Part shown: piece after piece, positions 112-32,790 of the stretch | Layout of the letters: each line of letters starts with the position of its first letter | Position numbering within the stretch: position 1 is the stretch's first letter | Source of the DNA: Azoarcus sp. | GTDB lineage: Bacteria; Pseudomonadota; Gammaproteobacteria; Burkholderiales; Rhodocyclaceae | Assembly (NCBI GenBank): GCA_030604735.1 | Contig: JAUVVG010000021.1 | Location: 1 to 64,000, forward strand | Reading direction: 5' to 3' | Length of the DNA stretch: 64,000 bases | Position numbers and translations under genes: made by a program | The notes under the pieces: generated by a model | Seen by the model: only the letters and a program-made list of their open reading frames with translations | What the model was told of the DNA's origin: nothing | Databases searched by the model: none

Positions 112-170
112 GCTGTAATCGTCCGCAGCGGCCGTCCGTTGCGGCGCCAAACCACCGGAGGATGGCCGGG

Positions 171-689
171 ATGAGAGCCGTACTCGATTTTCTATACCGC
201 ATGACCGGCGCGCTGGCCGCGATCGGGATGGTAGGCACCTTGATTTTCGTCGCGACCGGCATCGTCGCGCGTCCTCTCGGGCTCTATCTGCGCGGCACCG
301 ACGCCTATGCCGGCTACACCATGGCCGCGTGTGGTTTTCTGGCGCTGGCCTACACCTTCAAGTATGGCGAGCATATCCGGGTCAGCCTGCTGCTGGACCG
401 GCTGGGTGCGCGCCTGCGCCTGGTCACCGAATGGTTCGCATTGCTGGTCGGCGTCGCGGTGACCGGCATGCTGGCCTTCTACAGCGCCCGAATGGCGTGG
501 TTCTCCTACGAATTCGGGGATAGATCCCAAGGCATAGACGCGACCCCCTTGTGGATGCCGCAGATGCTGATGGTGATCGGCACCACCGTTTTATTCATTG
601 CCTTGCTCGACGATCTGGTGATGCGGGCCATGGGGCGTGAGCCTGCACGACTGGCTGGGGCCGGTCAGAACCAGAGCCGGATGGAGTAG
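171..689 (+). CDS. TRAP transporter small permease subunit (DctQ family), system 1
   Basis: This 172-aa inner-membrane protein has four hydrophobic segments, the size and pattern of DctQ proteins, which couple the periplasmic binding protein to the DctM permease. It contains the family-like stretch TFKYGEHIRVSLLLDRL between segments 2 and 3. The ORF track starts at 162, but GGAGGA overlaps that ATG. The ATG at 171 has the same GGAGGA at good spacing and is preferred. dctM follows after 9 bp. The substrate is unknown; TRAP systems import organic acids and related solutes using Na+ or H+ gradients. Confidence 0.9.
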   Translation: MRAVLDFLYRMTGALAAIGMVGTLIFVATGIVARPLGLYLRGTDAYAGYTMAACGFLALAYTFKYGEHIRVSLLLDRLGARLRLVTEWFALLVGVAVTGMLAFYSARMAWFSYEFGDRSQGIDATPLWMPQMLMVIGTTVLFIALLDDLVMRAMGREPARLAGAGQNQSRME

Positions 690-698
690 GGAGCAGGC

Positions 699-1997
699 AT
701 GGACATCCTCGTTGCACTTTCTCTCGTCGCCGCGATGCTGCTCATGCTCGCCGGTGGCGTCTGGATCGGAATGGCCCTGATGGCGGTCGGCATCCTCGGC
801 ATGCTTGGATTCACCTCGCGTGCGCCTGGCGACGGCATGGCGATGAGCATCTGGGGCATGGGGTCGAGCTGGACGCTGACCGCGTTGCCGTTGTTCTTGT
901 GGATGGGCGAGATCCTGTTCCGTACCCGGCTCTCGTCCGACATGTTCAAGGGCCTCGCGCCGTGGCTGGAGCGTCTGCCCGGGCGTCTGCTGCACACCAA
1001 CATCATCGGCTGTACGCTGTTCGCGGCGGTGTCCGGTTCGTCTGCGGCGACTTGCGCGACCATCGGCAAGATCAATCTGCCCGAGCTGTCCAAGCGCGGT
1101 TATCCCGAATCGATGGTGATCGGGACGCTGGCCGGCGCCGGTACGCTGGGATTGCTGATCCCACCATCCATCATCATGATCGTCTACGGCGTGGCCGCGG
1201 ACGTATCGATCGCGCGCCTGTTCATCGGGGGCGTGCTGCCGGGCCTACTGCTGGCGACCTTGTTCATGGGCTGGGTGGTCGTGTGGTCGCTGATGCATCG
1301 CGACCAGATTCCCAAGGCCGACCTGCGTTCGACTTTCATCGAGAAAATTCGGGCCTCGCGTAACCTGATCCCGGTGGTGGCCCTGATCGGTGCGGTGCTG
1401 GGCGGCATCTACTCGGGTATCGCGACCGCGACCGAAGCCGCCGCACTGGGCGTGATCGGCGCGCTGGTGATCGCTGCCAGCCAGGGTGCGCTGAGTCGTC
1501 GAACCTTCATCGACAGCCTGATGGGCGCGACCCGGCTGTACTGCATGATCGCGCTGATCCTGGCCGGCTCGGCCTTTCTGACGCTGGCGATGGGCTACAT
1601 CGGCCTGCCGCGTCACCTCGCCACCTGGATAGGCGAGCTGGGCTTGTCGCCGGCGGCGCTGCTGCTCGCGCTGACGCTGTTCTTCATCCTGCTCGGCTGC
1701 TTCCTCGATGCGATTTCCATCGTCGTGCTGACCATGGCGGTGCTGATGCCGACGATACAGGTGGCCGGCATCGATCCGCTGTGGTTCGGGATTTTCGTCG
1801 TGGTGGTGGTCGAGATGGCGCAGATCACCCCGCCGGTCGGCTTCAACCTGTTCGTGCTGCAAGGCATCACCGGGCGCGAGATCACGCGCGTGGCGGTCTA
1901 TGCGCTGCCGTACTTCATCCTCATGTGCGTGGCGGTGGTGCTGCTGTACCTGTTCCCCGGGATCGTGACCTGGCTGCCTGGGCACATGATGGGCTGA
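699..1997 (+). CDS. TRAP transporter large permease subunit (DctM family), system 1
   Basis: The 432-aa polytopic membrane protein has the usual DctM length and about 12 hydrophobic segments. Family-typical segments include SGSSAATCATIG, LLIPPSIIMIVYG and MAQITPPVGFNLFVLQGI near the C-terminus. It forms the ion-coupled translocation channel with DctQ. The start ATG is preceded by GGGAGCAGG and lies 9 bp after dctQ, so the two genes are cotranscribed. The operon ends here; the next gene is convergent. Confidence 0.93.
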   Translation: MDILVALSLVAAMLLMLAGGVWIGMALMAVGILGMLGFTSRAPGDGMAMSIWGMGSSWTLTALPLFLWMGEILFRTRLSSDMFKGLAPWLERLPGRLLHTNIIGCTLFAAVSGSSAATCATIGKINLPELSKRGYPESMVIGTLAGAGTLGLLIPPSIIMIVYGVAADVSIARLFIGGVLPGLLLATLFMGWVVVWSLMHRDQIPKADLRSTFIEKIRASRNLIPVVALIGAVLGGIYSGIATATEAAALGVIGALVIAASQGALSRRTFIDSLMGATRLYCMIALILAGSAFLTLAMGYIGLPRHLATWIGELGLSPAALLLALTLFFILLGCFLDAISIVVLTMAVLMPTIQVAGIDPLWFGIFVVVVVEMAQITPPVGFNLFVLQGITGREITRVAVYALPYFILMCVAVVLLYLFPGIVTWLPGHMMG

Positions 1998-3841: not shown

Positions 3842-4161
3842 TGGGCTGCTCCGCCGAGTTGTCCGATCGAACGTGCCCCATGGATCAAGCGAACATGCAT
3901 GCCCTCGCGAACCGGGGTGGCGCAGGCCTGCACGTTGGGTGTGCCGTCGACCTCCACCAGGCACTCGAAGCACACGCCCATCATGCAAAGGGGCGCGCGC
4001 GGTGCTCCGCTAACCGGCGTGTATCGCATCGGCACGCAATTCGCCTTCAGCAACGCAGCTGCAAGCGGCTCACCGATCATGGCCTGGCAGGGTTCCCCGT
4101 CGACGAATATTTCGCAGATGCGCCGCCGTTGCGGTGCATCCGACTCAATGAGCTTGAACAT
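3838..4161 (-). CDS. (2Fe-2S)-binding small subunit (HcnA/SoxA-like ferredoxin domain)
   Basis: This 107-aa protein carries C59, C64, C67 and C80 in the segment LCMMGVCFECLVEVDG plus a downstream VQAC, the spacing of plant-type [2Fe-2S] domains in HcnA and SoxA-like subunits. It overlaps the upstream HcnC-like gene by 17 bp and the downstream HcnB-like gene by 4 bp, implying translational coupling and a three-subunit enzyme. The likely role is electron relay between the two flavoproteins. The length agrees with HcnA-type proteins (about 100 aa). Confidence 0.88.
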   Translation of the reverse strand: MFKLIESDAPQRRRICEIFVDGEPCQAMIGEPLAAALLKANCVPMRYTPVSGAPRAPLCMMGVCFECLVEVDGTPNVQACATPVREGMHVRLIHGARSIGQLGGAAQ

Positions 4162-5260
4162 CGAAGCGCTCCGCGTTGAAGCCCGTGATCAGGTCCGGCT
4201 TGGGGTTTCCGCACAACCAGTGGACAAGCACTTCTGCGTGCATGGCGGCGAGCGTGATGCCGCTATGGCAACTGATGACGAATGCTCCGGGTTGGTCGGA
4301 GGATTCCTCGTAGATGGGCAATCCATCGCCTGTCATCACTCGCAATGCGCCCCAGGCACGAACGACGTTCAGATTACCAATATCCGGGAAGCAGCGGACC
4401 GCACGGGCCGCGATCTGTGACATCTGCTCGAGGCTTGTCCCGTCATCGAACCCGACATCTTCTTTGGAGTCGCCGATCTGGATGCCGCCATCGCCCGTCT
4501 GTCGAACATGCAACGTGGGCAGATCGAGAAAAGGCAAGGCCCGCTCGCAAACCAGTACCTGACCCCTGATCGGTTCGACCGGTGCGCGAAGGCCTACCAT
4601 CGGGGCCAGTTGACGGTTGCCCAGGCCTGCCGCAAGCACGATGCGCGGTGCCCGAAATCGTGCGTGGGGCGTCTTCAGTTCGTAAGCGCCACTGCGGTAC
4701 TCGATCATCTCTACGTGATGTCCCGGCACGTGGGTCCCTCCCAACATGTGGACGGCGGCGTGCATTGCTTTCAGCAGTCTGAGCGGATTGGCGTGACCAT
4801 CCATCGGGCAGAACGATCCGCCCACGACGTCCGGGCCTACGCCTAGCACACGATGCTGCACTGCTTTGCGGTCGAGAATCTCATACGGGTAGGGCTCACC
4901 GATCGTCGACGCAATGCCCTTCAGCTCCTCGTCGCGCCGGGCCAGCTCGGAGTTGTCGAGGCACAGATGCAGACCGCCGCGCTGTTGCAATTGGACGTCT
5001 ATGCCGGTCAATGCGGCGAGCGCACTCGAGAAGCTCTGCCACCGGGCGGCAGCCTGTACGGTCCAGCGTGCATATGCTGTGCTGTTCGCGCCCTTGCCCT
5101 GAACCCACACCAGACCGAAATTGCCGCGTGCGGCGCGAAAGGCGTCGTCCCCTTCGTCAAGCAGGTTGACAGTCAGGCCGCGTCTGAGGAGACCGTACGC
5201 AATCGACGCCCCGACCACGCCGCCTCCGACGACGATGAAATCTGTTTCGTGCTTTGTCAT
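4145..5260 (-). CDS. FAD-dependent amino-acid/amine oxidoreductase (DadA/HcnC/OoxB-like)
   Basis: The 371-aa flavoprotein begins with the FAD motif FIVVGGGVVGASIAYGLLRRG and ends with the DAO-type region TGDGLPIYEES...SCHSGITLAAMHAEVL. The family oxidises the C-N bond of glycine, D-amino acids, opines or proline analogues. The ORF track starts at 5341. The ATG at 5260 is preferred because it has AGGA at correct spacing and puts the FAD motif at residue ~7. It is the first gene of the dehydrogenase unit, downstream of the conserved element at 5341-5388. The true substrate cannot be read from sequence; the co-localised TRAP transporter suggests a small carboxylated amine. Confidence 0.88.
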   Translation of the reverse strand: MTKHETDFIVVGGGVVGASIAYGLLRRGLTVNLLDEGDDAFRAARGNFGLVWVQGKGANSTAYARWTVQAAARWQSFSSALAALTGIDVQLQQRGGLHLCLDNSELARRDEELKGIASTIGEPYPYEILDRKAVQHRVLGVGPDVVGGSFCPMDGHANPLRLLKAMHAAVHMLGGTHVPGHHVEMIEYRSGAYELKTPHARFRAPRIVLAAGLGNRQLAPMVGLRAPVEPIRGQVLVCERALPFLDLPTLHVRQTGDGGIQIGDSKEDVGFDDGTSLEQMSQIAARAVRCFPDIGNLNVVRAWGALRVMTGDGLPIYEESSDQPGAFVISCHSGITLAAMHAEVLVHWLCGNPKPDLITGFNAERFDVQAH

Positions 5261-5340
5261 TTGCGATTCCTGTTCTGTCGGACAGATGGAGCCACGGCAC
5301 GGACGGTGATCCATCGACCTCAAGATTAGGAAGGTCGGCA

Positions 5341-5388
5341 AATAAGATCAAATCAAGTCTTACATGTGATGCATGTGTAAATGTTATG
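5341..5388 (-). promoter_or_regulatory. Conserved operator-like element upstream of the HcnC-like gene
   Basis: On the plus strand this reads AATAA-N2-TCAAATCA-N4-TTA...GCATGTGTAAATGTTATG. The last 18 bases match 9605-9622 at 17 of 18 positions, and the AATAA, TCAAATCA and TTA blocks keep identical spacing there. The core TTACA-N11-TGTAA (5361-5381) is a dyad of the kind bound by LysR-type regulators. It sits about 80 bp before the HcnC-like start. The LysR gene lies just upstream on the same strand, so it is the candidate ligand-responsive activator (inference). Confidence 0.75.
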
Positions 5389-5427
5389 CGCAAAGCAGGG
5401 AGCGCTTCGGTTGCCTTGCTGAGCCGC

Positions 5428-6339
5428 TCACGAGCCAGCGTTGAGCAGGGGGTATGTGTCGAGCTCCTGTTGAAGCCGAGTCAGAAAGGGTTCGAGCAGC
5501 CTTGAGGCCGGTCTGTGACGGGGTTTCAGAAGGTGATATGTATAACGGATGGAGGGCAGAAACGGTTTTGCAACGACGCCCTTGTCTGTGTATTCCAGTG
5601 CGCCGATCGGCTCGACAAGCGCCACCCCCGCACCTTCTCGGACAAAGGCGCAGGCGCATGACGTGAGCTGGGCTTCGATAACGATCTGCCGCCTCACACC
5701 ATGATTCTCGAAAACCCGGCTGATCTGGTAGCGGACGCCGACCTCCGGTCCGAGGGTGATGAAGGGTTCGTCGTTCAGGTCCTCGACGCGAATGACGTCG
5801 CGGTTTGCCAGGCGATGGTTCATCGGCAATACGCAGCAGAGTGACGTTTCCAGCAAGGGCGAAACGTCGACGGCAGGATGGCTTGACTGGGTTGCGGCGA
5901 ATCCGATGTCGATCTGCTGGCTCGCGATCAATTCGAGCAGTTCGTCCGATGGCCTCGTTATCAGATGGACGCGAATGCGTGGATAGCTGAGGCGAAAGCG
6001 GGTTATGACACGGGGCAGAAAGGAAAGCGCCATTGCGGGGAGACTCGCAATGCTCAGCGTGCCAATCTGATAGTTGCGGATGCCTTCCGAGAATCGCGCG
6101 ATCTTCTCGATGCCAGAGAAGGAGCGTTCGACCTCGTCATACAGCAGCTTGGCCTCCAAGGTTGGATTCAGCCGTCCCTTCACGCGTGCGAAGAGCTGAA
6201 AGCCGACTGCGTGTTCCAAGTCCGACAACAGGCGGCTGACTGCCGGTTGTGTGATGCACAGCAGGTCCGCGGCGCGGGTTACCATGCCCGTTTGCATGGT
6301 GGCGCGAAAGGCTTCAAGTTGTCGGTGGTTCAGTCTCAT
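5428..6339 (-). CDS. LysR-family transcriptional regulator
   Basis: The 303-aa protein has the normal LysR length. Its N-terminal winged helix-turn-helix includes RQLEAFRATMQTGMVTRAA and ITQPAVSRLLSDLEHAVG, followed by a periplasmic-binding-like effector domain from about residue 90. It lies between the TRAP operon and the dehydrogenase genes, all on the minus strand, 40 bp upstream of one conserved element. It probably controls both units through the element copies at 5341-5388 and 9575-9622, with the TRAP substrate or its oxidation product as co-inducer. No good copy of the element was seen in front of lysR itself. Confidence 0.93.
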   Translation of the reverse strand: MRLNHRQLEAFRATMQTGMVTRAADLLCITQPAVSRLLSDLEHAVGFQLFARVKGRLNPTLEAKLLYDEVERSFSGIEKIARFSEGIRNYQIGTLSIASLPAMALSFLPRVITRFRLSYPRIRVHLITRPSDELLELIASQQIDIGFAATQSSHPAVDVSPLLETSLCCVLPMNHRLANRDVIRVEDLNDEPFITLGPEVGVRYQISRVFENHGVRRQIVIEAQLTSCACAFVREGAGVALVEPIGALEYTDKGVVAKPFLPSIRYTYHLLKPRHRPASRLLEPFLTRLQQELDTYPLLNAGS

Positions 6340-6555
6340 GGCTGCCTCTGATACGCGCGAACAAGTGCAACTTTAACGCGCGGATTGCAGCACGGACACC
6401 AACTTCTCCGACGAGATGATTATCACCGCAGCGCTCCCGTCACGCGATTGCGATCGTCAATCCGCTGGAAACGATGATCCTTGCCGGGCGCGGTTTAGCG
6501 ACCCAGCAAGGATTCGATGTGGATCAGGCTTCGATTGCGCGGCGTTGCGCCCGAG

Positions 6556-7554
6556 TCAACGCGTGAGCGTTGCGTCGAGAATCGGCTTTGCCCAGCGATC
6601 ACCCATGTCCTTCATGATCTCCGGCCAGACGGTGGCTCGGGCCTTGGTCGCATGGGCTTCGAGCCCCGCCGCGTCGACCGGGATCAGTGTGGCGCCGATG
6701 TCGACCAGACGTTGCTCGTTGACAGCCTGGTCCGCCTCGGCAGCCGTCCAGCGAGCAGATTCGAACGCCTGAGCCGCTGCCTCTATTGCTTGTTGCTGTT
6801 CCGCCGGGAGCTTTGCAAACGTCTCGGCGTTGACGAGCAGGTACCAGACCTCGAAGTGAGTGTTCAGCGGCACGTAGTATTTGGTCACGTCCCGGAAAGA
6901 GGCGTAGTAACCTTCGGCGCCCGAACCGATGACGCCATCGACGACACCGGTTTGGACCGCTGTGAAGGCCTCGGAGAAAGGTAGCGGCGAGCCGATGTAA
7001 CCGACGTTGTCCGCGAGGAGCTGGAACGACTTGATCGGCGGAACGCGCAGCTTCAGACCCTTGCTCGCATCGGGGTCACCGACGTTCGTCGGTTCCTTGT
7101 TCAGCGATACGCCGCCGAAGTAAAGCGGATAGGCCGCCAGAACCTTGATGTCCTGCTGGCCGTAAAGTTCTTCGATGGTCTCCCGTACTGGAGACCCCTT
7201 TGAGTAGACCTTCTGCGCCTCTTCCCAGTTGGTCGCAAGATAGGGCAGCAGAGCAATCTGAAGCCGGCGGTTGGCGCCGGTGGCAATCGGTTGAAGCGCC
7301 ATTTCGACCGCGCCGACCGAAACTCGCTCCTGCACGACCGTGTAGTCGCCCAGGGCGTTCGCCGGGAAGATGTCGAACTTCAGGGCGCCATTGGTAGCAG
7401 CCCCGACCGCATCGGCAAAGGCCCTTACATCCGTGTCTGCGGTGGTGCCCTGGGGTCTGACGTGGGACAACTTCAGCGTCGTCGCCACGGCGTCCGCCGC
7501 CGCCAGAGCGATGCACGCGCCAAACGCGATGGATCCGATAGATCTGAGTTTCAT
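6556..7554 (-). CDS. TRAP transporter substrate-binding protein (DctP family), system 2
   Basis: The 332-aa periplasmic protein starts with a signal peptide (MKLRSIGSIAFGACIALAAADAVA) and then the binding fold beginning TLKLSHVRPQG. The segments GLKLRVPP and QTGVVDGVIG are typical of DctP proteins, where the conserved arginine of the first binds the ligand carboxylate. The ORF track starts at 7662, but the ATG at 7554 has AAAGGAG upstream and opens the signal peptide. It is third in the order dctQ-dctM-dctP, 97 bp after dctM. The ligand is presumably a carboxylated compound oxidised by the neighbouring HcnABC-like enzyme. Confidence 0.92.
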   Translation of the reverse strand: MKLRSIGSIAFGACIALAAADAVATTLKLSHVRPQGTTADTDVRAFADAVGAATNGALKFDIFPANALGDYTVVQERVSVGAVEMALQPIATGANRRLQIALLPYLATNWEEAQKVYSKGSPVRETIEELYGQQDIKVLAAYPLYFGGVSLNKEPTNVGDPDASKGLKLRVPPIKSFQLLADNVGYIGSPLPFSEAFTAVQTGVVDGVIGSGAEGYYASFRDVTKYYVPLNTHFEVWYLLVNAETFAKLPAEQQQAIEAAAQAFESARWTAAEADQAVNEQRLVDIGATLIPVDAAGLEAHATKARATVWPEIMKDMGDRWAKPILDATLTR

Positions 7555-7651
7555 GAAAGTCTCCTTTGTGGGTGCAGCGATTGGATCGAGGGATTGCTCG
7601 TGGCCTGTGCGACTGCCGTTCGAGCGTGATGAAGCGATTTCAGGCAATGGA

Positions 7652-8950
7652 TCAGTAGCCAAATAGACGCGGGAAGAACATCGACAAGTCCTCCCAGAAC
7701 AGCGTCAGAACTGCGATCGGCACATAGCCGGTCAGCAGCAATACCATGGCAGGTCGAATAACCTGGGTCACCGGCACCTGCCCGATTCGAGCTCCCAAGT
7801 ACAGGATGCTTGCGTAGGGTGGCGTGACGCCGCCCATGGCGGTGCTGACGCCGATGATCGCCGCGAAATGGATCCGATCCACACCGATTGCATCCACGAG
7901 CGGAAGCAGTAGCGGCGCGACGAGAATGATGGCGGTGATGTCGTTCACCACCATGCCGAGCAAGAACAGCAGCACCATGATGAGAATCAAAAGCAGCGTC
8001 CTGTCGGTCGTGATCTCAAAGATGAAATTGACGAGCTTCTGCGGTACGTTTTCCATCACGAACATTTGACTAAGGATCAAACTGAACAGGATCATGATCA
8101 TGATCGAACCGACCGAGGTTCCGGCCTCCCGTCCGGCTGCGAGCAGACTTTGAAGGGTCAGGCCCTTGTAGATGAGGAACCCGACCGGCAGCGCGTAGAT
8201 CACAGAGATCGCGGCCGCCTCCGTGGGTGTCATGATTCCGCCGTAGATTCCGCCCAGAATCACGATCGGCATCAGCAGGGCCGGAATCGCATAGGTGGTT
8301 CGGCGACTGGTTTCCTTGATCAGTTGCTTTAAGGGCGTCGGATCGTCGAGAACCAGCGGGAATCGTCTGGCCATGAACAGGTTTACGATCGAGAACGAGA
8401 GCATCACGGCGAGACCGGGTCCCAGCGTGGCAAGAAAGCTTGCCAGGATCGAAGTTTCAGTTACCCAGCCGTACACGATCATCGTGACGCTGGGTGGAAT
8501 CAGTAGGCCGAGAATCGAGGAGTTCGCCACCAATGCAGTTGCATAGGCTCGGGGATAGCCCTTGCGCTCCATCTCGGGAATCAGGATCGGACCGATCGCG
8601 GCCACGCCAGTCAAGCCGCTGCCTGAGATGGCTCCGATGATCGCGCAGCTGACGGTTGCGACAACGCCGAGACCACCGCGGATGCGTCCGACGAAGATGT
8701 TAACGAAGCGCAGGAGCGCCGCCGCGATCCCGCTGGAACTCATGATGGTCCCGGCGAGTACGAATAGTGGAATGGCAAGCAAGACCGGCGAGGCGAGTTG
8801 CCCGAAACCCCACATCATGGCCCCCTTCATCGTGGCGCCGCCGACGAAGACCATGACCATGATGCCGCCGCCGAAGCAGTAGGGCAGCGGTACGCCGATG
8901 GTGAGGAGCAGTACCAGGAGTCCGAACGCGAGTGCAGCGGATTCAAGCAT
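7652..8950 (-). CDS. TRAP transporter large permease subunit (DctM family), system 2
   Basis: The 432-aa membrane protein contains the DctM-type segments CAIIGAISGSGLTGVAAIG, LLIPPSVTMIVYGWV and GVTPPYASILYLGARIG. Its start overlaps the dctQ stop by 8 bp. It forms the ion-coupled channel of the second TRAP system and is only distantly similar to the DctM at 699-1997, so the two systems are not a recent duplication. The gene order dctQMP differs from system 1, where a binding-protein gene seems to come first. Confidence 0.93.
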   Translation of the reverse strand: MLESAALAFGLLVLLLTIGVPLPYCFGGGIMVMVFVGGATMKGAMMWGFGQLASPVLLAIPLFVLAGTIMSSSGIAAALLRFVNIFVGRIRGGLGVVATVSCAIIGAISGSGLTGVAAIGPILIPEMERKGYPRAYATALVANSSILGLLIPPSVTMIVYGWVTETSILASFLATLGPGLAVMLSFSIVNLFMARRFPLVLDDPTPLKQLIKETSRRTTYAIPALLMPIVILGGIYGGIMTPTEAAAISVIYALPVGFLIYKGLTLQSLLAAGREAGTSVGSIMIMILFSLILSQMFVMENVPQKLVNFIFEITTDRTLLLILIMVLLFLLGMVVNDITAIILVAPLLLPLVDAIGVDRIHFAAIIGVSTAMGGVTPPYASILYLGARIGQVPVTQVIRPAMVLLLTGYVPIAVLTLFWEDLSMFFPRLFGY

Positions 8951-9437
8951 GGTTCGTTCCCCGACCGTCGCTGAAATTCTCGGAGAAGAGTCTGCGACAG
9001 TGCCTGAAGAGATGGAACAGGGTCCATACGCACATCAGGAACAGTCCGATGAAGAGGGCCGCGTCGGAGTAGATGGTCGGGATGTAAAGAGTTGGACTTT
9101 CCTTGCCGACCCGGATGGAGTACTGGAGAAAATCCCATGCCCAGTGCGTCAGCCAGAGGGCGATGGCCAGGCTGATCGATTCAGTCACGATCGCAAGAAC
9201 GACCTTGGCACGCTGAGTGCCGAGGAAGATCTCGAGCACGTTCGCGCGGATCTGGGTGTCTTCCCGTGAAGCATTGACGCTGCCCAGCATGTAGAGCCAC
9301 AGTGCCGGATACATCAGCACCTCCTCCAGACCCATCACAGGTATCTGGAGGACGTATCGCGTGACGACCTGAACGCACTGAAGGGCTGCAACGGCGAGTA
9401 GCAGCATCGTCAGTGTGTACTTGAAGAGCCGTTCCAT
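8943..9437 (-). CDS. TRAP transporter small permease subunit (DctQ family), system 2
   Basis: The 164-aa protein has four hydrophobic segments and the DctQ hallmark MGLEEVLMYPALWLYMLGSV between segments 1 and 2. It is the first gene of the dctQMP unit. The ATG is followed by the short basic stretch ERLFKYT before the first membrane helix. The conserved element at 9575-9622 lies about 138 bp upstream, so this promoter is probably controlled together with the dehydrogenase genes. Confidence 0.91.
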   Translation of the reverse strand: MERLFKYTLTMLLLAVAALQCVQVVTRYVLQIPVMGLEEVLMYPALWLYMLGSVNASREDTQIRANVLEIFLGTQRAKVVLAIVTESISLAIALWLTHWAWDFLQYSIRVGKESPTLYIPTIYSDAALFIGLFLMCVWTLFHLFRHCRRLFSENFSDGRGTNHA

Positions 9438-9574
9438 ATCCGACTGTCTCCTGTTTCAACTAACCTGAACCCTTGTGATCCCGTACCGCCCGTGGCCTGA
9501 TCGGCTACCGGACGGCGCCAGCGCGTCCCTGGCCAAGTTGTTGATTTTGTTAATTGCATTATCGGCAGCTCATG

Positions 9575-9622
9575 AATAAATTCAAATCAGTAATTAGTGT
9601 GGTTGCATGCGTAAATGTTATG
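9575..9622 (-). promoter_or_regulatory. Second copy of the conserved operator-like element, upstream of dctQMP
   Basis: The block AATAA-N2-TCAAATCA-N4-TTA...GCATGCGTAAATGTTATG repeats the arrangement at 5341-5388 with the same internal spacing. Between the conserved blocks the bases differ, which argues for functional conservation rather than a recent duplication. It lies in the 265-bp gap that also precedes the divergent Mut7-C gene. A LysR-type dyad (TTA-N15-TAA) is retained. Confidence 0.75.
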
Positions 9623-9702
9623 TAATGCCTTGCTGAGTTCGATTTGATCTGCACTGCCGCCTAACTTCATGAATGACTTTTTGTGCTGAAAGCCCGGCTG
9701 CC

Positions 9703-10446
9703 ATGGTCACCGCCACGTTTCGCTTCTACGAGGTACTGAACGACTTCCTCGCGCCGCATCATCGGTGGCGCGAGTTCGACGCGCCGTGCGCGCGGGCTGC
9801 GAGCTTGAAGCACATGATCGAGGCGCTCGGGGTGCCGCATACCGAGGTGGAGTTGGTGCTGGTGAATGGAGAGTCGGTGGGCTTCGACCGGCTGTTGCGG
9901 CATGGCGACCGGGTGGCGGTGTACCCGAAGTTCGAGGCGCTCGACATCACGCCCTTGCTGTGCGTGCGCGACCAGCCGCTACGCCGGACGCGCTTCGTCG
10001 CCGACGCGCATCTGGGCGGGCTTGCGCGACTGCTGCGCCTGACCGGTTTCGATACGCTTTACGACAACGGCTTCGCGGACGACGAGATCGTCGCGATCGC
10101 GTTGCGGGATGAACGCATCGTGCTCACCCGCGATCGGGAGCTGCTGAAGCGTCGAAGCGTCACGCACGGGTGTTTCGTGCACGCGCTGAAGCCAAGACTG
10201 CAAGTGCGCGAGATATTCGACCGGCTCGACCTGGCCGGTAGCGCACGCCCGTTCACGCTGTGTCTCGACTGCAACGTGCCGTTGCGCCCGATCGACAGGG
10301 CGCAGGCCGAGGCACGGATTCCGCCGATGGTTCGCGAACGCCAACAGCGATTCAGTACCTGCGACGTCTGCCGGCGGGTGTTCTGGGAGGGCTCGCACTG
10401 GCAGCACATGCGCGAACTCGTGGATGAACTGCTTGACCGCGGTTGA
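9703..10446 (+). CDS. Mut7-C RNase domain protein with N-terminal ubiquitin-like domain
   Basis: The 247-aa protein begins with a beta-grasp (ThiS/MoaD-like) region of about 80 residues, VTATFRFYEVLNDFL to RLLRHGDRVAVYP. The Mut7-C/PIN-like domain follows: FVADAHLGGLARLLRLTGFDT, then DDEIVAIALRDERIVLTRDRELL. A zinc ribbon near the C-terminus has CLDCNVPL and CDVCRRVFW. The Mut7-C fold is predicted to be a nuclease; the biological role in bacteria is uncertain. The ORF begins at 9673, but the ATG at 9703 places the beta-grasp domain at the N-terminus; neither start has a clear ribosome-binding site. It is divergent from the TRAP operon. Confidence 0.85.
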   Translation: MVTATFRFYEVLNDFLAPHHRWREFDAPCARAASLKHMIEALGVPHTEVELVLVNGESVGFDRLLRHGDRVAVYPKFEALDITPLLCVRDQPLRRTRFVADAHLGGLARLLRLTGFDTLYDNGFADDEIVAIALRDERIVLTRDRELLKRRSVTHGCFVHALKPRLQVREIFDRLDLAGSARPFTLCLDCNVPLRPIDRAQAEARIPPMVRERQQRFSTCDVCRRVFWEGSHWQHMRELVDELLDRG

Positions 10447-15787: not shown

Positions 15788-15839
15788 CTGCAGGCTATCC
15801 GTGCGATCGGGTGGTGTGCGTGACCAAAGCGAGGGTGTG

Positions 15840-16754
15840 ATGACAGCGAAACGTATGCAAGGGGTGCTTTCCCCGGTGGTGACTCCGTTCGATCAGGATC
15901 TTCGTCCGAACGGACAAAAGCTGGTGCGCCAGTGCCGTTGGTTGCTGGACAACAATGTGGGGCTGGCCGTGTTCGGCACCAACTCAGAGGCCAACTCGCT
16001 GTCGGTCGGCGAGAAGCGGGCCCTGCTCCAGCAACTGGTCGAGGCGGGGCTGCCGCCCGAGCGGATGATGCCGGGCACCGGCTGTTGCGCGCTGACCGAT
16101 TCGGTCGAGCTGACCCGCGAGGCGGTCGGCCTGGGCTGTGGCGGTGTGCTGATGCTGCCGCCCTTCTATTACAAGGGCGTGTCCGACGACGGGCTGTTCC
16201 GCAGCTACGCCGAGATCATCGAGCGGGTCGGCGACGCGCGCCTGCGCATCTATCTGTATCACATCCCGCCGGTCGCGCAGGTCGGCATCAGTCTGGGTCT
16301 GATCGAGCGCCTGCTCAAGGCCTATCCGGGCACGATCGCCGGCATCAAGGACAGCTCCGGCAACTGGGACAACACCAAGGCGATGCTGGATACCTTCCAG
16401 CCGGAAGGCTTCGACGTGTTCGCCGGCAGCGAGACTTTCCTGCTCGCGACCAAACGCGCTGGCGGCGCCGGCTGCATCAGTGCGACCGCCAACGTCAATC
16501 CGGCCGCGATCTCGGCGCTGGCCGACAACTGGCAGGCCGAGGATGCCGATGCCCGGCAGGCCGCGCTGGACACGGTACGGCAGATCTTCCAGCGCTATCC
16601 GATGATTCCGGCGCTGAAGGCAGCGGTAGCACTCTACGGCGGCGACGCTGACTGGGCGATTGTCCGGCCGCCACTGGTGGCGCTGGAGGCCGCCCAACGC
16701 GACGCCTTGCGGGCCGACCTCGACGCAGTCGGGTTCTCGATGCCGGGTCTATGA
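15840..16754 (+). CDS. Dihydrodipicolinate synthase/N-acetylneuraminate lyase (DapA) superfamily enzyme
   Basis: The 304-aa class I aldolase-fold protein has the DapA-family motifs GTNSEANSLS (the GTTGE position), a catalytic Tyr in LYHIPPVAQVG and the Schiff-base Lys in TIAGIKDSSGNW. Members cleave or dehydrate 2-keto-3-deoxy acids, for example 5-keto-4-deoxyglucarate dehydratase and KDG aldolase. The active-site loop differs from true DapA, and the context is catabolic, so lysine synthesis is unlikely. The ATG at 15840, with GAGGG upstream, is preferred over 15801. The UxaA-family gene follows after 12 bp. Confidence 0.88.
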   Translation: MTAKRMQGVLSPVVTPFDQDLRPNGQKLVRQCRWLLDNNVGLAVFGTNSEANSLSVGEKRALLQQLVEAGLPPERMMPGTGCCALTDSVELTREAVGLGCGGVLMLPPFYYKGVSDDGLFRSYAEIIERVGDARLRIYLYHIPPVAQVGISLGLIERLLKAYPGTIAGIKDSSGNWDNTKAMLDTFQPEGFDVFAGSETFLLATKRAGGAGCISATANVNPAAISALADNWQAEDADARQAALDTVRQIFQRYPMIPALKAAVALYGGDADWAIVRPPLVALEAAQRDALRADLDAVGFSMPGL

Positions 16755-16766
16755 AAGGTGAATGAC

Positions 16767-18311
16767 ATGACGGAAGTAATCAGCAAGCCCGCCGCACCGG
16801 TGATCCGGCTCCATCCGGACGACAACGTCGTGATCGCTCGCGGTGATGTCGCGATCGGCACCGAGATCCCGGGTGAAGGCGTGACCAGCCGCAGCCAGGT
16901 GCCGGCCGGCCACAAGATCGCGTCGTGCGCGATCGCCAAGGGCGAACCGATCCGCAAGTACAACGTGGTGATCGGCTTCGCATTGAACGACATCGCGCCG
17001 GGTACGATGGTCCATGGCCACAACATGTTGTTCCGCGAATACGACCGGGACTACGCGCATTCCAGCGAATATCGCCCGGTCGAGATGCTGCCGGAGCCGG
17101 CCCGGGCGACTTTCCAGGGCATCGTCCGGGCCGATGGCCAGGTCGCGACCCGCAACTATGTCGGCATCCTGTCCACGGTGAACTGTTCGGCGACCGTGGT
17201 GCACCGGATCGCGGAGTGGTTCACGCCCGAGCGCCTGGCCGAGTACCCGAACATCGACGGCGTGGTCGCGTTCAGCCACGGCATCGGCTGTGGCATGGAG
17301 ATGAGCGGCGAGCCTATGGATCTGCTGCGCCGGACCATCGCCGGCTATGCCCGCCACCCCAACATGGCAGCGTCGCTGATCATCGGTCTGGGTTGCGAGC
17401 GCAACCAGATCAAGGACCTGGTTGCGGCGGAGAGCCTGAACACCAGTGCCCGGCTGCACACATTCACGATGCAGGACGAGGGGGGCACCCGCAAGACCAT
17501 CGAGGCCGGCATCGCCGCGGTCCAGGCCTTGCTGCCCGAGGCCAACAAGGTCGTGCGCGAGACCGTGCCGGCCAGCCATCTGATGCTGGGCTTGCAGTGC
17601 GGCGGTTCGGACAGCTTTTCATCGATTTCCGCCAACCCGGCGCTCGGTGCGGCGGTGGACATCCTGGTCCGTCACGGCGGCACCGCGATCCTGTCGGAAA
17701 CGCCGGAGATCTATGGGGTCGAGCACACCCTGACCCGACGCGCGGTATCGCGCGAAGTCGGCGAGAAACTGGTAGAGCGCGTCCGCTGGTGGAAGGAGGA
17801 ATACTCGGTCGGGCGTGACGTGCAGATCAACGGCAAGGTCAGCCCGGGCAACCAGGCTGGCGGGCTGGCCAACATTTTCGAGAAGTCGCTCGGCTCGTCG
17901 ATGAAGGGCGGCACCGGCCCGTTGATGGAGGTCTACAAGTACGCCGAGCCGGTGCGTGCGAAAGGCCTGGTGTTCATGGACACGCCGGGTTTCGACCCGG
18001 TCTCGATTACCGGCCAGATCGCCGGCGGGGCCAACCTCATCGCCTTCACCACCGGCCGCGGTTCGATGTTCGGCGCAAAACCGTCACCCAGCCTGAAGCT
18101 CGCGACCAACTCGCCGATGTTCCACCGTCTCGAAGAAGACATGGACATCAACTGCGGGGAGATCCTCGATGGCACGCTCAGTGTGCAGGAGATGGGGCAG
18201 CGCATCTTCGAGCAACTGTTGCGCACCGCCTCGGGCGAACGGACCAAGAGCGAGCTGCTAGGGTTGGGTGATCACGAATTCGCGCCGTGGAGCATCGGCA
18301 TCATGAGTTGA
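16767..18311 (+). CDS. UxaA-family dehydratase (altronate/galactarate dehydratase-like)
   Basis: The 514-aa protein has an N-terminal SAF domain (about residues 15-95, RLHPDDNVVIARGDVAIGTEI) followed by the full UxaA region with FSHGIGCGMEMSG, LIIGLGCERNQIKDL and GLQCGGSDSFSSISANPALG. Such iron-dependent enzymes remove water from sugar acids such as altronate or galactarate to give 2-keto-3-deoxy acids. The start at 16767 is chosen because GAAAGGTG lies 6 bp upstream; the ORF track begins at a GTG (16758). It probably supplies the substrate of the DapA-family enzyme encoded just before it. Exact substrate not determined. Confidence 0.9.
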   Translation: MTEVISKPAAPVIRLHPDDNVVIARGDVAIGTEIPGEGVTSRSQVPAGHKIASCAIAKGEPIRKYNVVIGFALNDIAPGTMVHGHNMLFREYDRDYAHSSEYRPVEMLPEPARATFQGIVRADGQVATRNYVGILSTVNCSATVVHRIAEWFTPERLAEYPNIDGVVAFSHGIGCGMEMSGEPMDLLRRTIAGYARHPNMAASLIIGLGCERNQIKDLVAAESLNTSARLHTFTMQDEGGTRKTIEAGIAAVQALLPEANKVVRETVPASHLMLGLQCGGSDSFSSISANPALGAAVDILVRHGGTAILSETPEIYGVEHTLTRRAVSREVGEKLVERVRWWKEEYSVGRDVQINGKVSPGNQAGGLANIFEKSLGSSMKGGTGPLMEVYKYAEPVRAKGLVFMDTPGFDPVSITGQIAGGANLIAFTTGRGSMFGAKPSPSLKLATNSPMFHRLEEDMDINCGEILDGTLSVQEMGQRIFEQLLRTASGERTKSELLGLGDHEFAPWSIGIMS

Positions 18312-18320
18312 TGAAGAGGT

Positions 18321-18346
18321 GCCCCGCTCTCTTGCGAGGGCGGGGC
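18321..18346 (+). terminator. Hairpin after the UxaA-family gene
   Basis: GCCCCGCTCTC and GAGGGCGGGGC form an 11-bp stem with one G-T pair and a TTGC tetraloop. It starts 9 bp after the stop codon. The T-run of a classical intrinsic terminator is missing, but the stem is very stable. Confidence 0.6.
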
Positions 18347-18348
18347 GA

Positions 18349-18384
18349 TTCACCGTCCGGGGAGGAGGTAGGACGGACGGTGAA
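18349..18384. repeat. Perfect 10-bp inverted repeat after the terminator hairpin
   Basis: TTCACCGTCC and GGACGGTGAA flank a purine-rich 16-nt spacer. This second hairpin follows the first by 2 bp. Its function is not known; it may reinforce termination or protect the 3' end. Confidence 0.6.
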
Positions 18385-18461
18385 GCCGGTAGCCGAGAAA
18401 GCCAGGCGGTTGCCTGACGGCACCCGACGATGAACAGGCTCCCATCATGCACGGCAGTCAA

Positions 18462-18644
18462 ATCGGTGGAGGCGGCCGTCCTCGCGGCGACTCAGCCCGA
18501 GCGCATGCCGCTGTTGGTGCGCGTAGCGGCCGCGATCCCTGCTGTCTGAGGCCGAAGGCCGAGTTCAGGGATCGCAGCGAAGCGCGCCTTACAGCGGCAG
18601 CGCGAGTGGCTGTCGGAGCCGCGAGGACGGCCGCCTCCACCGAT
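18462..18644. repeat. 183-nt long imperfect hairpin element
   Basis: The outer 27-bp arms ATCGGTGGAGGCGGCCGTCC... (18462-18488) and 18618-18644 are perfect reverse complements. Inside, GCGATCCCTG (18532-18541) pairs exactly with CAGGGATCGC (18566-18575), the regions between are also largely complementary, and the tip is GGCC-GAA-GGCC. The whole region can fold into one long rod. No reading frame here resembles a protein. It may be a REP/BIME-like or other non-autonomous repeat, or a structured RNA; copy number in the genome would decide. Confidence 0.75.
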
Positions 18645-18736
18645 CGGCAGTGCGTGCGCACGCATGCTGCCGTTCCGGCCCGGACGACCTCCGGCTCAGC
18701 GCGATGCGATTCACTCCACAACCGATAGGCAGTGCG
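18639..18736. repeat. 16-nt near-identical direct repeat (ACCGATCGGCAGTGCG / ACCGATAGGCAGTGCG)
   Basis: Copies at 18639-18654 and 18721-18736 differ at one position. The first overlaps the right arm of the long hairpin and starts a smaller hairpin (CGGCAGTGCG...TGCTGCCG, 18645-18672). The repeat could mark a target-site or internal module boundary of the element. Confidence 0.5.
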
Positions 18737-18761
18737 CATTCGCGAAAGCTGCCCTTCTGGT

Positions 18762-19469
18762 TCAAACGACAGTCAGACTCAGCTCCGCGACGCCCTCCAC
18801 GCCTCCGCTGATCCTGTCTCCTCGCTGCACCGGCCCGACACCGGCCGGCGTGCCGGTGAAGATGAGGTCGCCCGGCGCGAGGGTGAACAGCGCGGACAGC
18901 GTTGCGATCACCTCCGGAACCTTCCAGATCAACTGATTCAGATCGCCACTCTGGCGGCGCTCGCCGTTGACGTCCAGCCAGATCAGGCCCGCCGCAGGGT
19001 GGCCGATCCGCTCCGCCGGGACGATCGCGGAGCAGGGCGCCGAGGCCTCGAAGGCCTTGTCGACCTCCCACGGACGGCCCTGTTTTTTTGCCTCGGCCTG
19101 CAGGTCGCGACGGGTCATGTCGATGCCGACCGCGTAACCGTAGACACAGTCCAGCGCGGACTCGAGCGGGATGTCGCGACCGCCCATGGCCAGCGCCACC
19201 ACCAATTCGATCTCGTGATGGACGTCGGTGCTCATCACAGGGTACGGAAAGCGTCCGTCGGGAACCTCCACCGCGTCCGGATTCTTCTGGAAGAAGAACG
19301 GGCTCTCGCGGTTGGGATCATGGCCCATCTCGATCGCATGGTCGGCGTAATTGCGACCGACGCAGTAGATCCGGCGTACCGGGAAGCGCGCCGATTCGCC
19401 CTGCACCGGCAGCGCGGGCTGCCTCGGTGCCGGGATGACCCAGTCGGTGCTGTTCGTGGCGTCGCTCAT
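18762..19469 (-). CDS. Fumarylacetoacetate hydrolase (FAH) family protein
   Basis: The 235-aa single-domain FAH protein has the core motifs RRIYCVGRNYADHA, the acidic metal-binding motif VHHEIELVVAL, and GDLIFTGTPAGVGPV near the C-terminus. The family cleaves C-C bonds in or hydrates 2-keto acids and diketo acids, and includes acylpyruvases and 2-keto-3-deoxy acid hydrolases. The ATG overlaps the stop of the IlvD/Edd-family gene by 4 bp, so the two are translated together. In sugar-acid pathways an FAH enzyme can hydrolyse a diketo-deoxy intermediate to pyruvate and a hydroxyacid. The specific reaction here is inferred only. Confidence 0.88.
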   Translation of the reverse strand: MSDATNSTDWVIPAPRQPALPVQGESARFPVRRIYCVGRNYADHAIEMGHDPNRESPFFFQKNPDAVEVPDGRFPYPVMSTDVHHEIELVVALAMGGRDIPLESALDCVYGYAVGIDMTRRDLQAEAKKQGRPWEVDKAFEASAPCSAIVPAERIGHPAAGLIWLDVNGERRQSGDLNQLIWKVPEVIATLSALFTLAPGDLIFTGTPAGVGPVQRGDRISGGVEGVAELSLTVV

Positions 19470-21247
19470 GCCTTGTCCTCGGGTTGGGCAGGTTTGGCCG
19501 GCACGGTCTCCCGGATCTCGACCGCACGCAGGAAATCGAAGTCGCAGCCGGCGTCGGCCTGGGTGACCGTCGACAGGAAGAGCTTGCGATAGCCGCGCTG
19601 GTCTTCCGCTCTCGGCGGGGCAGGCGGCATTGCGGCGCGGCGGCGCGCCAGCTCGGTCTCATCGACCAGCAGGGTCAGACTGCGCTCGGAAACGCTCAGG
19701 CGGATGCGATCGCCGGATTGTACCAAGGCGAGCGGGCCACCCATCGCCGATTCCGGCGTCACATGCAGGACGATGCTGCCCGAGGCGGTGCCGCTCATCC
19801 TGCCGTCCGAAATGCGCACCATGTCCTTGACGCCTAGGCGGCCGATCTTCTTGGGAATCGGCATGTAGCCGGCTTCCGGCATGCCGGGCGCCCCGATCGG
19901 GCCGATGTTCTTCAGCACCAGCACGTCTTCCGGGTTGACGTCCAGATCCGGGTCATCGATGCGCTTGGCGAGGTCTTCCAGGTTCTCGAACACGACTGCG
20001 CGGCCTTCGTGCTCCATCAAGTCCTTGGACGCGGCCGATTGCTTGATGATCGCGCCGCCCGGGGCGAGGTTGCCACGCAGGAAGGCGATGCCGCCCTGCG
20101 GGTAGATCGGGTTTTCTCGGCTCCTCACGACATCCTGAGGGAAGCCCGGACCGGCCGCGTCGAGCTCCTCGCCCAGGGTGCGGCCCGTCACAGTCAGGGT
20201 GTCCAGATGCAGCAGCGGACGCAATTCGCGCAGCACTGCGGCCAATCCACCGGCCTTGTGGAGGTCTTCCATGTAGTGCTGGCCGGACGGCTTGAGGTCG
20301 ACCAGCACCGGGGTTTCCTTGCTGATCCTGTCGAGCCCGTCCAGGTCGATCGCGATGCCGAGTCGGCCGGCGATCGCGGTCAGGTGAATGATGGCGTTGG
20401 TCGAGCCGCCGATCGCGAGCAAGACCCGCAAGGCGTTCTCGAAGGCCTTGCCGGTCAGGATGCGGTCCGGGGTCAGGCCGGCGCCTATCATCGCCACCGC
20501 CTGGGTGCCGGTGCGTTCGGCGACCCGAATCCGGTCCGCGGTCACCGCAGGCGGCGTGGCGCCGCCGGGCACCATCATGCCCAGCGCCTCGGTGATGCAG
20601 GCCATGGTACTGGCGGTGCCCATCACCGAGCAGGTGCCGACGCTGGCCACCAGCTGATTGTTGACGTCGGCGATCTCCTGCGCGTCGATCTCGTCGCCAC
20701 GGTAGCTCGCCCAGAAGCGGCGACAGTCGGTGCAGGCGCCGACCCGGGTGCCACGGTGAGAGCCCGTCAGCATCGAACCGGTGACCAGCTGGATGGCCGG
20801 GATGCCGGCGCTGGCCGCGCCCATGAGCTGGGCCGGTACGGTCTTGTCGCAACCGCCGATCAAGACCACCGCGTCCATGGGCTGGGCCCGGATCAGTTCC
20901 TCGGTGTCCATCGCCATCAGATTGCGCAGGAACATGCTGGTCGGATGGGCGAAGCTCTCGTGGATGGAGATGGTCGGAAACTCAACCGGCAGGCCACCGG
21001 CCAGCATCACGCCGCGCTTGACCGCCTCGATCAGCTGCGGCGCATTGCCATGGCAGGGGTTGAAACCGCTGCCGGTGTTGGCGATCCCGACGATGGGCTT
21101 GGACAGGGCGTCGTCGGTGTAGCCGGCCCCCTTGATGAAGGCCTTGCGCAGGAACAGGGAGAACTCGCGATCGCCATAATTGGTGAGCGCCTTGCTCATG
21201 CCCTGGGCGGCTTGTGGTTTGGGACTGCTGTTGTCGGATGAAGCCAC
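19466..21247 (-). CDS. IlvD/Edd-family dehydratase (sugar-acid dehydratase-like)
   Basis: The 593-aa protein has the IlvD/Edd Fe-S ligand motifs NPCHGN, GGCDKTVPA and VGTCSVMGTASTMA, plus DGRMSGTASGSIVLHVTPESA near the C-terminus. The family dehydrates 2,3-dihydroxy acids: valine/isoleucine precursors, 6-phosphogluconate, or sugar acids such as arabinonate and xylonate. Coupling to an FAH hydrolase and a TctCBA transporter argues for a sugar-acid role rather than amino-acid synthesis. The start is GTG at 21247 with GGAGG 6 bp upstream. The ATTATTGATAAT palindrome lies 18 bp before the start codon. Confidence 0.9.
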   Translation of the reverse strand: MASSDNSSPKPQAAQGMSKALTNYGDREFSLFLRKAFIKGAGYTDDALSKPIVGIANTGSGFNPCHGNAPQLIEAVKRGVMLAGGLPVEFPTISIHESFAHPTSMFLRNLMAMDTEELIRAQPMDAVVLIGGCDKTVPAQLMGAASAGIPAIQLVTGSMLTGSHRGTRVGACTDCRRFWASYRGDEIDAQEIADVNNQLVASVGTCSVMGTASTMACITEALGMMVPGGATPPAVTADRIRVAERTGTQAVAMIGAGLTPDRILTGKAFENALRVLLAIGGSTNAIIHLTAIAGRLGIAIDLDGLDRISKETPVLVDLKPSGQHYMEDLHKAGGLAAVLRELRPLLHLDTLTVTGRTLGEELDAAGPGFPQDVVRSRENPIYPQGGIAFLRGNLAPGGAIIKQSAASKDLMEHEGRAVVFENLEDLAKRIDDPDLDVNPEDVLVLKNIGPIGAPGMPEAGYMPIPKKIGRLGVKDMVRISDGRMSGTASGSIVLHVTPESAMGGPLALVQSGDRIRLSVSERSLTLLVDETELARRRAAMPPAPPRAEDQRGYRKLFLSTVTQADAGCDFDFLRAVEIRETVPAKPAQPEDKA

Positions 21248-21264
21248 CTTATACCTCCGGTAAT

Positions 21265-21276
21265 ATTATTGATAAT
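21265..21276. promoter_or_regulatory. Palindrome ATTATTGATAAT between the divergent IlvD-like and TctC genes
   Basis: This is the reverse complement of the dyad at 15761-15772, with identical arms and centre. It separates two divergent units of the same catabolic locus. Binding by the local GntR/FCD regulator would co-regulate enzymes and transporter (inference). Confidence 0.65.
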
Positions 21277-21280
21277 CTTG

Positions 21281-21310
21281 TTGACGATGCGATCTTAGCT
21301 GAGTTAGATT
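21281..21310 (+). promoter_or_regulatory. Candidate tctC promoter
   Basis: TTGACG (21281) and TAGATT (21305) are 18 bp apart. The palindrome at 21265-21276 lies immediately upstream of the -35. Confidence 0.4.
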
Positions 21311-21387
21311 GGCCCCGCAACTCGCGAAACGAGCCGCCACATTCCGTTTTCCGGATTTGTTGAATCAAGCACGAGGAGACCTCCAAG

Positions 21388-32671: not shown

Positions 32672-32744
32672 GGTGTTTCTCCTCGACTGTCGGCCGCCGG
32701 GTTGGCGGCGCTGCAGGACCGATATTGAAACAACCGGAAAATTT

Positions 32745-32780
32745 AATAAAATAGATTATTACCTGATGTTTAATCGACAT
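32745..32780. promoter_or_regulatory. AT-rich divergent promoter region with two short dyads (LysR site candidates)
   Basis: AATAA-N6-TTATT (32745-32760) and ATGT-N7-ACAT (32766-32780) lie between icd and lysR in a strikingly AT-rich stretch. Two adjacent dyads in a divergent gap are the usual arrangement of recognition and activation sites for a LysR protein that controls its neighbour and itself. Confidence 0.45.
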
Positions 32781-32790
32781 TTATAAATAT

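What the first reader, a model, noticed from the sequence alone, without database searches (positions are those of the whole stretch)
5341..9622. A ~48-bp regulatory element is repeated before dctQMP and before the HcnC-like gene
AATAA-N2-TCAAATCA-N4-TTA...GCATGYGTAAATGTTATG occurs at 5341-5388 and 9575-9622 with identical spacing. The 18-bp core differs at one base, while linker bases vary. Both copies face minus-strand units flanking a LysR gene. This ties transporter and enzyme into one regulon and defines a testable operator.
Basis: seen in the sequence. Interest (0 to 1): 0.7.

Follow-up and report, generated by a model that had tools for sequence, protein, structure and literature searches.

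The report
Twin LysR operator-promoters around their regulator
The repeated 48-base element is real and is an ordinary type of switch site, the binding site plus promoter for a LysR-family activator, present twice because the regulator gene sits between the two gene groups it probably controls; related bacteria carry the same site in the expected places.

Summary
The element lies at 5341-5388 and 9575-9622 (35/48 identical, 18-base core 17/18) and nowhere else in the 4.06-Mb assembly.

Read in gene direction (minus strand), each copy is a LysR-type operator fused to a -35 box: CATAACATTTACRCATG (T-N11-A), 17 bases, then GATTTGA, whose TTGA starts a -35 hexamer 16-17 bases from a -10. Predicted site centres (about -64 and -33, 31 bp apart) equal those published for OccR.

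Independent support is strong. A matrix built only from operators beside LysR genes of other bacteria ranks the two copies 1st and 2nd of about 128,000 positions in the window (34.7 and 33.4; next 19.6). Another genus of the family (L051) has the same gene order, dctQMP-lysR-hcnCAB-ridA, with both operators in the same two places.

Elsewhere, e.g. Oceanisphaera, one operator in a divergent lysR/operon gap serves the whole cassette; here the regulator is embedded and the operator doubled. The 'one regulon, testable operator' reading is supported by comparison; binding, inducer and substrate are untested. It is a known kind of system in an unusual layout.

The parts
9575..9622 (-). Operator-promoter copy 2 (dctQ promoter): distal LysR site, 17-base linker, proximal site overlapping the -35
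   Evidence: sequence; motif rank 2 in window with an external matrix
9606..9622 (-). Distal LysR recognition site (IR1/RBS), CATAACATTTACGCATG, T-N11-A, predicted centre about -63
9558..9585 (-). Predicted sigma-70 promoter of dctQMP(-lysR): TTGAAT-16-GATAAT
5341..5388 (-). Operator-promoter copy 1 (hcnC promoter)
   Evidence: (motif rank 1 in window)
5372..5388 (-). Distal LysR recognition site (IR1/RBS), CATAACATTTACACATG, predicted centre about -64
5323..5351 (-). Predicted promoter of hcnCAB-ridA: TTGATC-17-TAATCT (weaker consensus match, below the scan threshold)
   Evidence: read; the orthologous promoter L051h has TTGTTG-17-TAGCAT at the same offset
8943..9437 (-). dctQ, TRAP transporter small permease
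   Evidence: PF04290
7652..8950 (-). dctM, TRAP transporter large permease
   Evidence: PF06808
6556..7662 (-). dctP, TRAP solute-binding protein (true start probably downstream of the listed TTG)
5428..6339 (-). LysR-type regulator embedded between the two target units
   Evidence: best solved relative OccR 5vvh, E 5.9e-24
4145..5260 (-). hcnC/odhB-like FAD beta subunit (DAO fold); start taken as the ATG at 5260, not the listed TTG at 5341
   Evidence: PF01266
3838..4161 (-). hcnA/odhC-like [2Fe-2S] gamma subunit
   Evidence: PF13510
2408..3988 (-). hcnB/odhA-like NAD(P)/FAD alpha subunit (listed ORF probably starts too early)
   Evidence: PF07992, PF17806, PF04324
2062..2415 (-). ridA-like enamine/imine deaminase, last gene of the unit
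   Evidence: PF01042

Best explanation
Each copy is the operator and -35 region of a promoter activated by the LysR-type protein encoded at 5428-6339. A regulator dimer holds the distal T-N11-A site (CATAACATTTACRCATG, about -64). A second dimer contacts the weaker proximal site (TGATTTGA..TTAT, about -33) that overlaps the -35 hexamer. When the transported substrate or a derivative binds, the tetramer shifts on the proximal site and recruits RNA polymerase. The two copies thus switch on dctQMP(-lysR) and hcnCAB-ridA together: uptake by a TRAP transporter, oxidation by a three-subunit flavin dehydrogenase, and imine clean-up by RidA. The operator is doubled because, unlike in relatives where lysR is divergent from one long operon, lysR here sits inside the cassette and hcnC needs its own regulated promoter. 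As lysR lies downstream of dctP with no operator of its own, it probably rides on the promoter it activates, giving positive feedback. Shown by sequence: the sites, their spacing, uniqueness and conservation. Inferred: binding, sliding-dimer activation, inducer, substrate (an opine-like or D-amino-acid-like secondary amine) and co-transcription of lysR.
For: Only two copies in the genome. An external matrix from 11 operator sites (8 groups) in other bacteria, without the window or L051, scores the copies 34.7 and 33.4 against 19.6 for the next position in 64 kb; all 15 sites rank 1 or 2 in their loci in a leave-group-out test. ATT[TG]G lies exactly 35 bases from the site start in 12 of the 15 operators used. 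L051, another genus with LysR 63% identical, has the same order and both copies, with the same -35/-10 spacings per promoter: 16 for dctQ, 17 for hcnC. Oceanisphaera plasmid L030 has the same cassette with one operator in the lysR/dctQ gap. Distance between site centres is 31 bp, as in OccR (-64 and -33; PMC5002191). Nearest solved structure of the regulator is OccR. No operator lies upstream of lysR (best score -2.3).
Against: No binding or expression data. The proximal site matches the ATAA-N7-TTAT pattern only 6 of 8. The hcnC promoter -10 (TAATCT) is weak. LysR families often share similar boxes, so another LysR protein of this genome could bind. A 15-pair hairpin between dctP and lysR (about 6477-6513) could limit read-through into lysR.
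Confidence: 0.88

Rival explanations
1. The copies are operators, but for a different regulator encoded elsewhere in the genome; the embedded LysR controls something else.
For: The genome has many LysR-like candidates (47 in the first look); LysR boxes are similar across the family.
Against: The motif occurs nowhere else in the genome, and in the related loci it stands beside a LysR gene of the same clade and an hcnCAB-type operon.
Confidence: 0.06
2. The repeat is a small mobile or recombined sequence, or a leftover of a rearrangement, kept by descent and not by function.
For: A 12-base block CTCAGCAAGGCA flanks both copies, which points to a segmental duplication or gene conversion in the window lineage.
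Against: Only two copies in the genome; the linker has diverged while the two half-sites and -35 are kept; the same sites recur at the same offsets in distant bacteria with other gene orders.
Confidence: 0.03
3. The conserved block is mainly the core promoter or an RNA leader element rather than a protein-binding site.
For: The GATTTGA half includes the -35 hexamer.
Against: The best conserved part is the distal CATAACATT..ATG half at about -64, upstream of the predicted transcript; it has the T-N11-A form and lies at the LysR spacing.
Confidence: 0.03

Closest known systems
OccR operator (occR-occQ, octopine catabolism, Agrobacterium)
   Same: Distal high-affinity inverted repeat at -64 and proximal repeat at -33, 31 bp apart (PMC5002191); OccR is the closest solved relative of the regulator; controls transport and breakdown of an amino-acid conjugate.
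   Different: Right half of the distal site is RCAT rather than TTAT; two operators instead of one; regulator gene embedded and co-oriented instead of divergent; TRAP instead of ABC transporter. The OccR ligand is not implied.
Cassette dctQMP-hcnCAB-ridA with divergent lysR on Oceanisphaera plasmid pA (L030)
   Same: All eight genes have counterparts (44-74% identity); operator with the same half-site spacing.
   Different: One operator in one divergent gap; the window has two operators and an internal lysR.
Flavin-containing opine dehydrogenase OdhBCA (PMC4575208) and D-hydroxyproline dehydrogenase
   Same: Beta-gamma-alpha gene order; DAO-type beta subunit with Arg-X-Trp; C-X4-C-X2-C-X12-C gamma subunit.
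   Different: Substrate unknown; published clusters are described with ABC-type transporters.
CynR and E. coli LysR operators
   Same: ATAA-N7-TTAT repeats at -66 and -34 (CynR, PMC5002191); the window regulator scores 283.6 against the PRK11013 LysR model (cut-off 288).
   Different: Different targets; below the curated cut-off.

Membership tests
LysR-type activator operator | T-N11-A distal recognition site near -65 | tested here: met
   CAT-N11-ATG in both copies; centre about -64/-63 relative to the predicted start. The start itself is predicted, not mapped.
LysR-type activator operator | Proximal activation site overlapping the -35, about 31 bp from the distal site | tested here: met
   6/8 match to ATAA-N7-TTAT at offset 31 in both copies, containing TTGAAT/TTGATC
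LysR-type activator operator | Conserved upstream of orthologous targets beside a LysR gene | tested here: met
   External matrix ranks 1 and 2 in window; sites rank 1-2 in all 15 leave-group-out cases; both copies in L051
LysR-type activator operator | Bound by the LysR protein, inducer-dependent activation | not testable with these tools
   needs gel shift, footprint, reporter fusion
Classical divergent lysR-target layout | lysR divergent from its target with overlapping promoters | tested here: not met
   lysR is co-oriented, between dctP and hcnC; L051 the same
OccR (octopine regulator) proper | Orthologous to OccR with octopine as ligand | tested here: inconclusive
   Closest solved structure is OccR, E 5.9e-24, ligand domain only; no ligand evidence; not filed as OccR
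Flavin-containing opine / D-hydroxyproline dehydrogenase superfamily | beta (DAO) - gamma ([2Fe-2S]) - alpha gene order with conserved cofactor motifs | tested here: met
   Domains; Cys and Arg-X-Trp motifs read from the translations; motifs as in PMC4575208
Flavin-containing opine / D-hydroxyproline dehydrogenase superfamily | Activity on opines or D-hydroxyproline | not testable with these tools
   needs enzyme assay

The most novel reading that the evidence does not exclude
An embedded LysR gene whose two flanking target promoters are kept matched by gene conversion as the regulator's DNA specificity drifts, with the regulator driven by its own activated promoter (positive feedback, possibly all-or-none induction) instead of the usual negative autoregulation of divergent LysR genes.
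Probability: 0.25. Interest if true: 0.5.

Novelty: new member of a known kind. Interest (0 to 1): 0.36.

Why it matters
It gives a sequence-defined operator for a clade of uncharacterised LysR regulators tied to three-subunit amine/opine-type dehydrogenases (consensus about CATAACATT-N4-gcATg, 18 bases, ATTtGa), so regulons and substrates of these cassettes can be searched for by motif. It is also a clean natural case of what happens to an operator when a regulator gene sits inside an operon rather than beside it.

Tried and rejected
Dispersed repeat: rejected. Core alone in 150 relatives with 3 mismatches: hits at control level, uninformative because the motif is short and few relatives have the cassette. 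Genome-contig scan with LysR found only a 24% relative, useless. Order, class and phylum samples found only distant relatives, so the cassette is rare and patchy; none of nine other species in L051's genus has it at the limit used. Extra regulon members: two further sites with 3 mismatches in the genome are chance-like. An operator upstream of lysR: none. Empty site in the same-genus genome G001: its Mut7-C relative is only 48-50% identical and its neighbourhood is unrelated, so nothing follows. In one script the proximal-half offset was wrong by one base; one search replaces its scoring part. No clear operator was found at L036, L043, L045 and L046; L032, L033 and L035 have only partial matches.

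Full report
Observation. Both copies are present exactly as described. They are 35/48 identical, the core 17/18. Shuffled versions of the two intergenic regions never gave more than 29/48 or 16/18 (2000 shuffles). The core with up to 3 mismatches, and a composite of core and GATTTGA with up to 3 mismatches, occur twice in the 4.06-Mb assembly and nowhere else. The assembly is 95% complete, so a further copy in the missing part cannot be excluded.

Surroundings. The enzyme genes have the beta-gamma-alpha order and cofactor motifs described for flavin-containing opine dehydrogenase and D-hydroxyproline dehydrogenase (PMC4575208; motifs read). The two elements stand directly upstream of dctQ and of hcnC.

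Anatomy. Read on the minus strand, each copy begins CATAACATTTACRCATG, that is CAT-N11-ATG, a T-N11-A box as LysR-type proteins bind. After a 17-base linker, mostly different between the copies, comes GATTTGA..TTATT. The TTGA in it begins a -35 hexamer: TTGAAT-16-GATAAT for dctQ (found by the promoter scan) and TTGATC-17-TAATCT for hcnC (read from the sequence, weaker). With a start about 7 bases after the -10, the distal site is centred near -64 and the proximal ATAA-N7-TTAT-like site near -33. The two centres are 31 bp apart. For OccR of Agrobacterium the published centres are -64 and -33 (PMC5002191). The classical model, with a distal recognition site, a proximal activation site and a sliding dimer on inducer binding, is summarised in PMC12609908.

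Comparative test. LysR relatives were fetched from plasmids and genomes, and their genes mapped by tblastn. In most loci with a linked hcnCAB-type operon the gap next to lysR holds the same bipartite site. Of the 15 operators used for the matrix, 12 have ATT[TG]G at exactly 35 bases from the site start; L037, L039 and L044 have variants there. A second Cupriavidus site (L038b) also lacks it and was not used in the matrix. A position matrix from sites outside the window and L051 scores the window copies 34.7 and 33.4; the next of about 128,000 positions in the window scores 19.6 and lies in an AT-rich stretch. In leave-group-out tests all 15 sites rank 1 or 2 in their own loci. The choice of sites was made by eye from the same gaps, after seeing the window motif, so the ranks of the relatives are somewhat favourable; for the two window copies no window sequence entered the matrix.

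Nearest relative. Among 399 genomes of the family one other genus (G665, L051) carries the cassette, with LysR 63%, DctM 78% and hcnC 65% identical. Its gene order is the same, lysR included, and it has both operators in the same places: L051 6769 upstream of dctQ, and 10882 between lysR and hcnC. The -35/-10 spacings match promoter by promoter, 16 for dctQ and 17 for hcnC. The layout is therefore older than the split of the two lineages or moved as a unit. The cassette was not found in nine other species of that genus or in the sampled same-genus genome of the window (at the E-value limits used), so it is patchy and probably moves horizontally.

Layout and history. In Oceanisphaera (L030) the same eight genes are ordered lysR | dctQMP-hcnCAB-ridA with lysR divergent and one operator in the gap. 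In the window lineage lysR sits between dctP and hcnC, so a second regulated promoter is needed for the enzyme genes. The LysR tree joins the window and L051 (93/88 support) but leaves deeper forks open, so which layout is ancestral is not proven. In the window the two copies are more alike (35/48) than either is to L051 (27-31/48), and they share a 12-base upstream block that L051 lacks; in L051 the two copies are only 27/48 alike. This suggests a later duplication or gene conversion of the operator segment in the window lineage. It rests on one genome.

Mechanism. Best reading: the embedded LysR protein activates both promoters in response to the transported substrate or a derivative, tying uptake and oxidation together. 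No operator lies before lysR and no terminator-like site with a T-run lies between dctP and lysR, although a strong hairpin does. So lysR may be carried by the dctQMP transcript, which would give positive feedback. That step is inference.

Verdict. The system is a known kind: a LysR activator with OccR-like operator geometry and a transporter-dehydrogenase cassette. The doubled operator around an embedded regulator is the unusual part. Taxonomic names of the window and G665 are not given by the tools and are not claimed. The occR-occQ sequence itself was not fetched; the comparison with it rests on the cited paper.

Noticed in passing
window 5412-5423 and 9626-9637 (TGCCTTGCTGAG on the + strand): A 12-base block CTCAGCAAGGCA (minus strand) lies upstream of both operator copies at different distances and occurs nowhere else in the window; absent from L051. 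Suggests segmental duplication or gene conversion.
   Followed up: partly
window about 6477-6513, - strand: Strong hairpin of about 15 pairs (AUCCUUGCUGGG...CCCGGCAAGGAU) between dctP and lysR, without a T-run; may process or attenuate the transcript before lysR.
   Followed up: no
window 162-1997, + strand: A second, unrelated TRAP transporter (dctQ, dctM) converges on ridA; its upstream region lies at the contig start and cannot be checked for an operator.
   Followed up: no
window 9673-10446, + strand: Mut7-C RNase/ubiquitin-like gene starts about 50 bases behind the dctQ operator, divergent from it; its promoter may overlap the operator.
   Followed up: no
window 15801-22365: Cluster of DHDPS-family, galactarate/altronate dehydratase, IlvD/EDD-type dehydratase and TctC receptor genes; looks like sugar-acid catabolism.
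   Followed up: no
L042 8974-9021: A genome of another family in the class has two tandem LysR genes divergent from a second hcnC paralog; the operator CATAACTTTTACGCATG differs from the window core at one base.
   Followed up: partly
L030 8245-9591: The Oceanisphaera cassette lies next to a gene annotated as DMSP lyase dddP; possible hint at substrate context.
   Followed up: no
L038 5592 and 5724: Cupriavidus plasmid pBB2 has two operator-like sites in one lysR-bug gap, the second with the proximal half shifted by about one base.
   Followed up: no
window about 32725-32815: Short AT-rich stretch in a 64% GC window.
   Followed up: no
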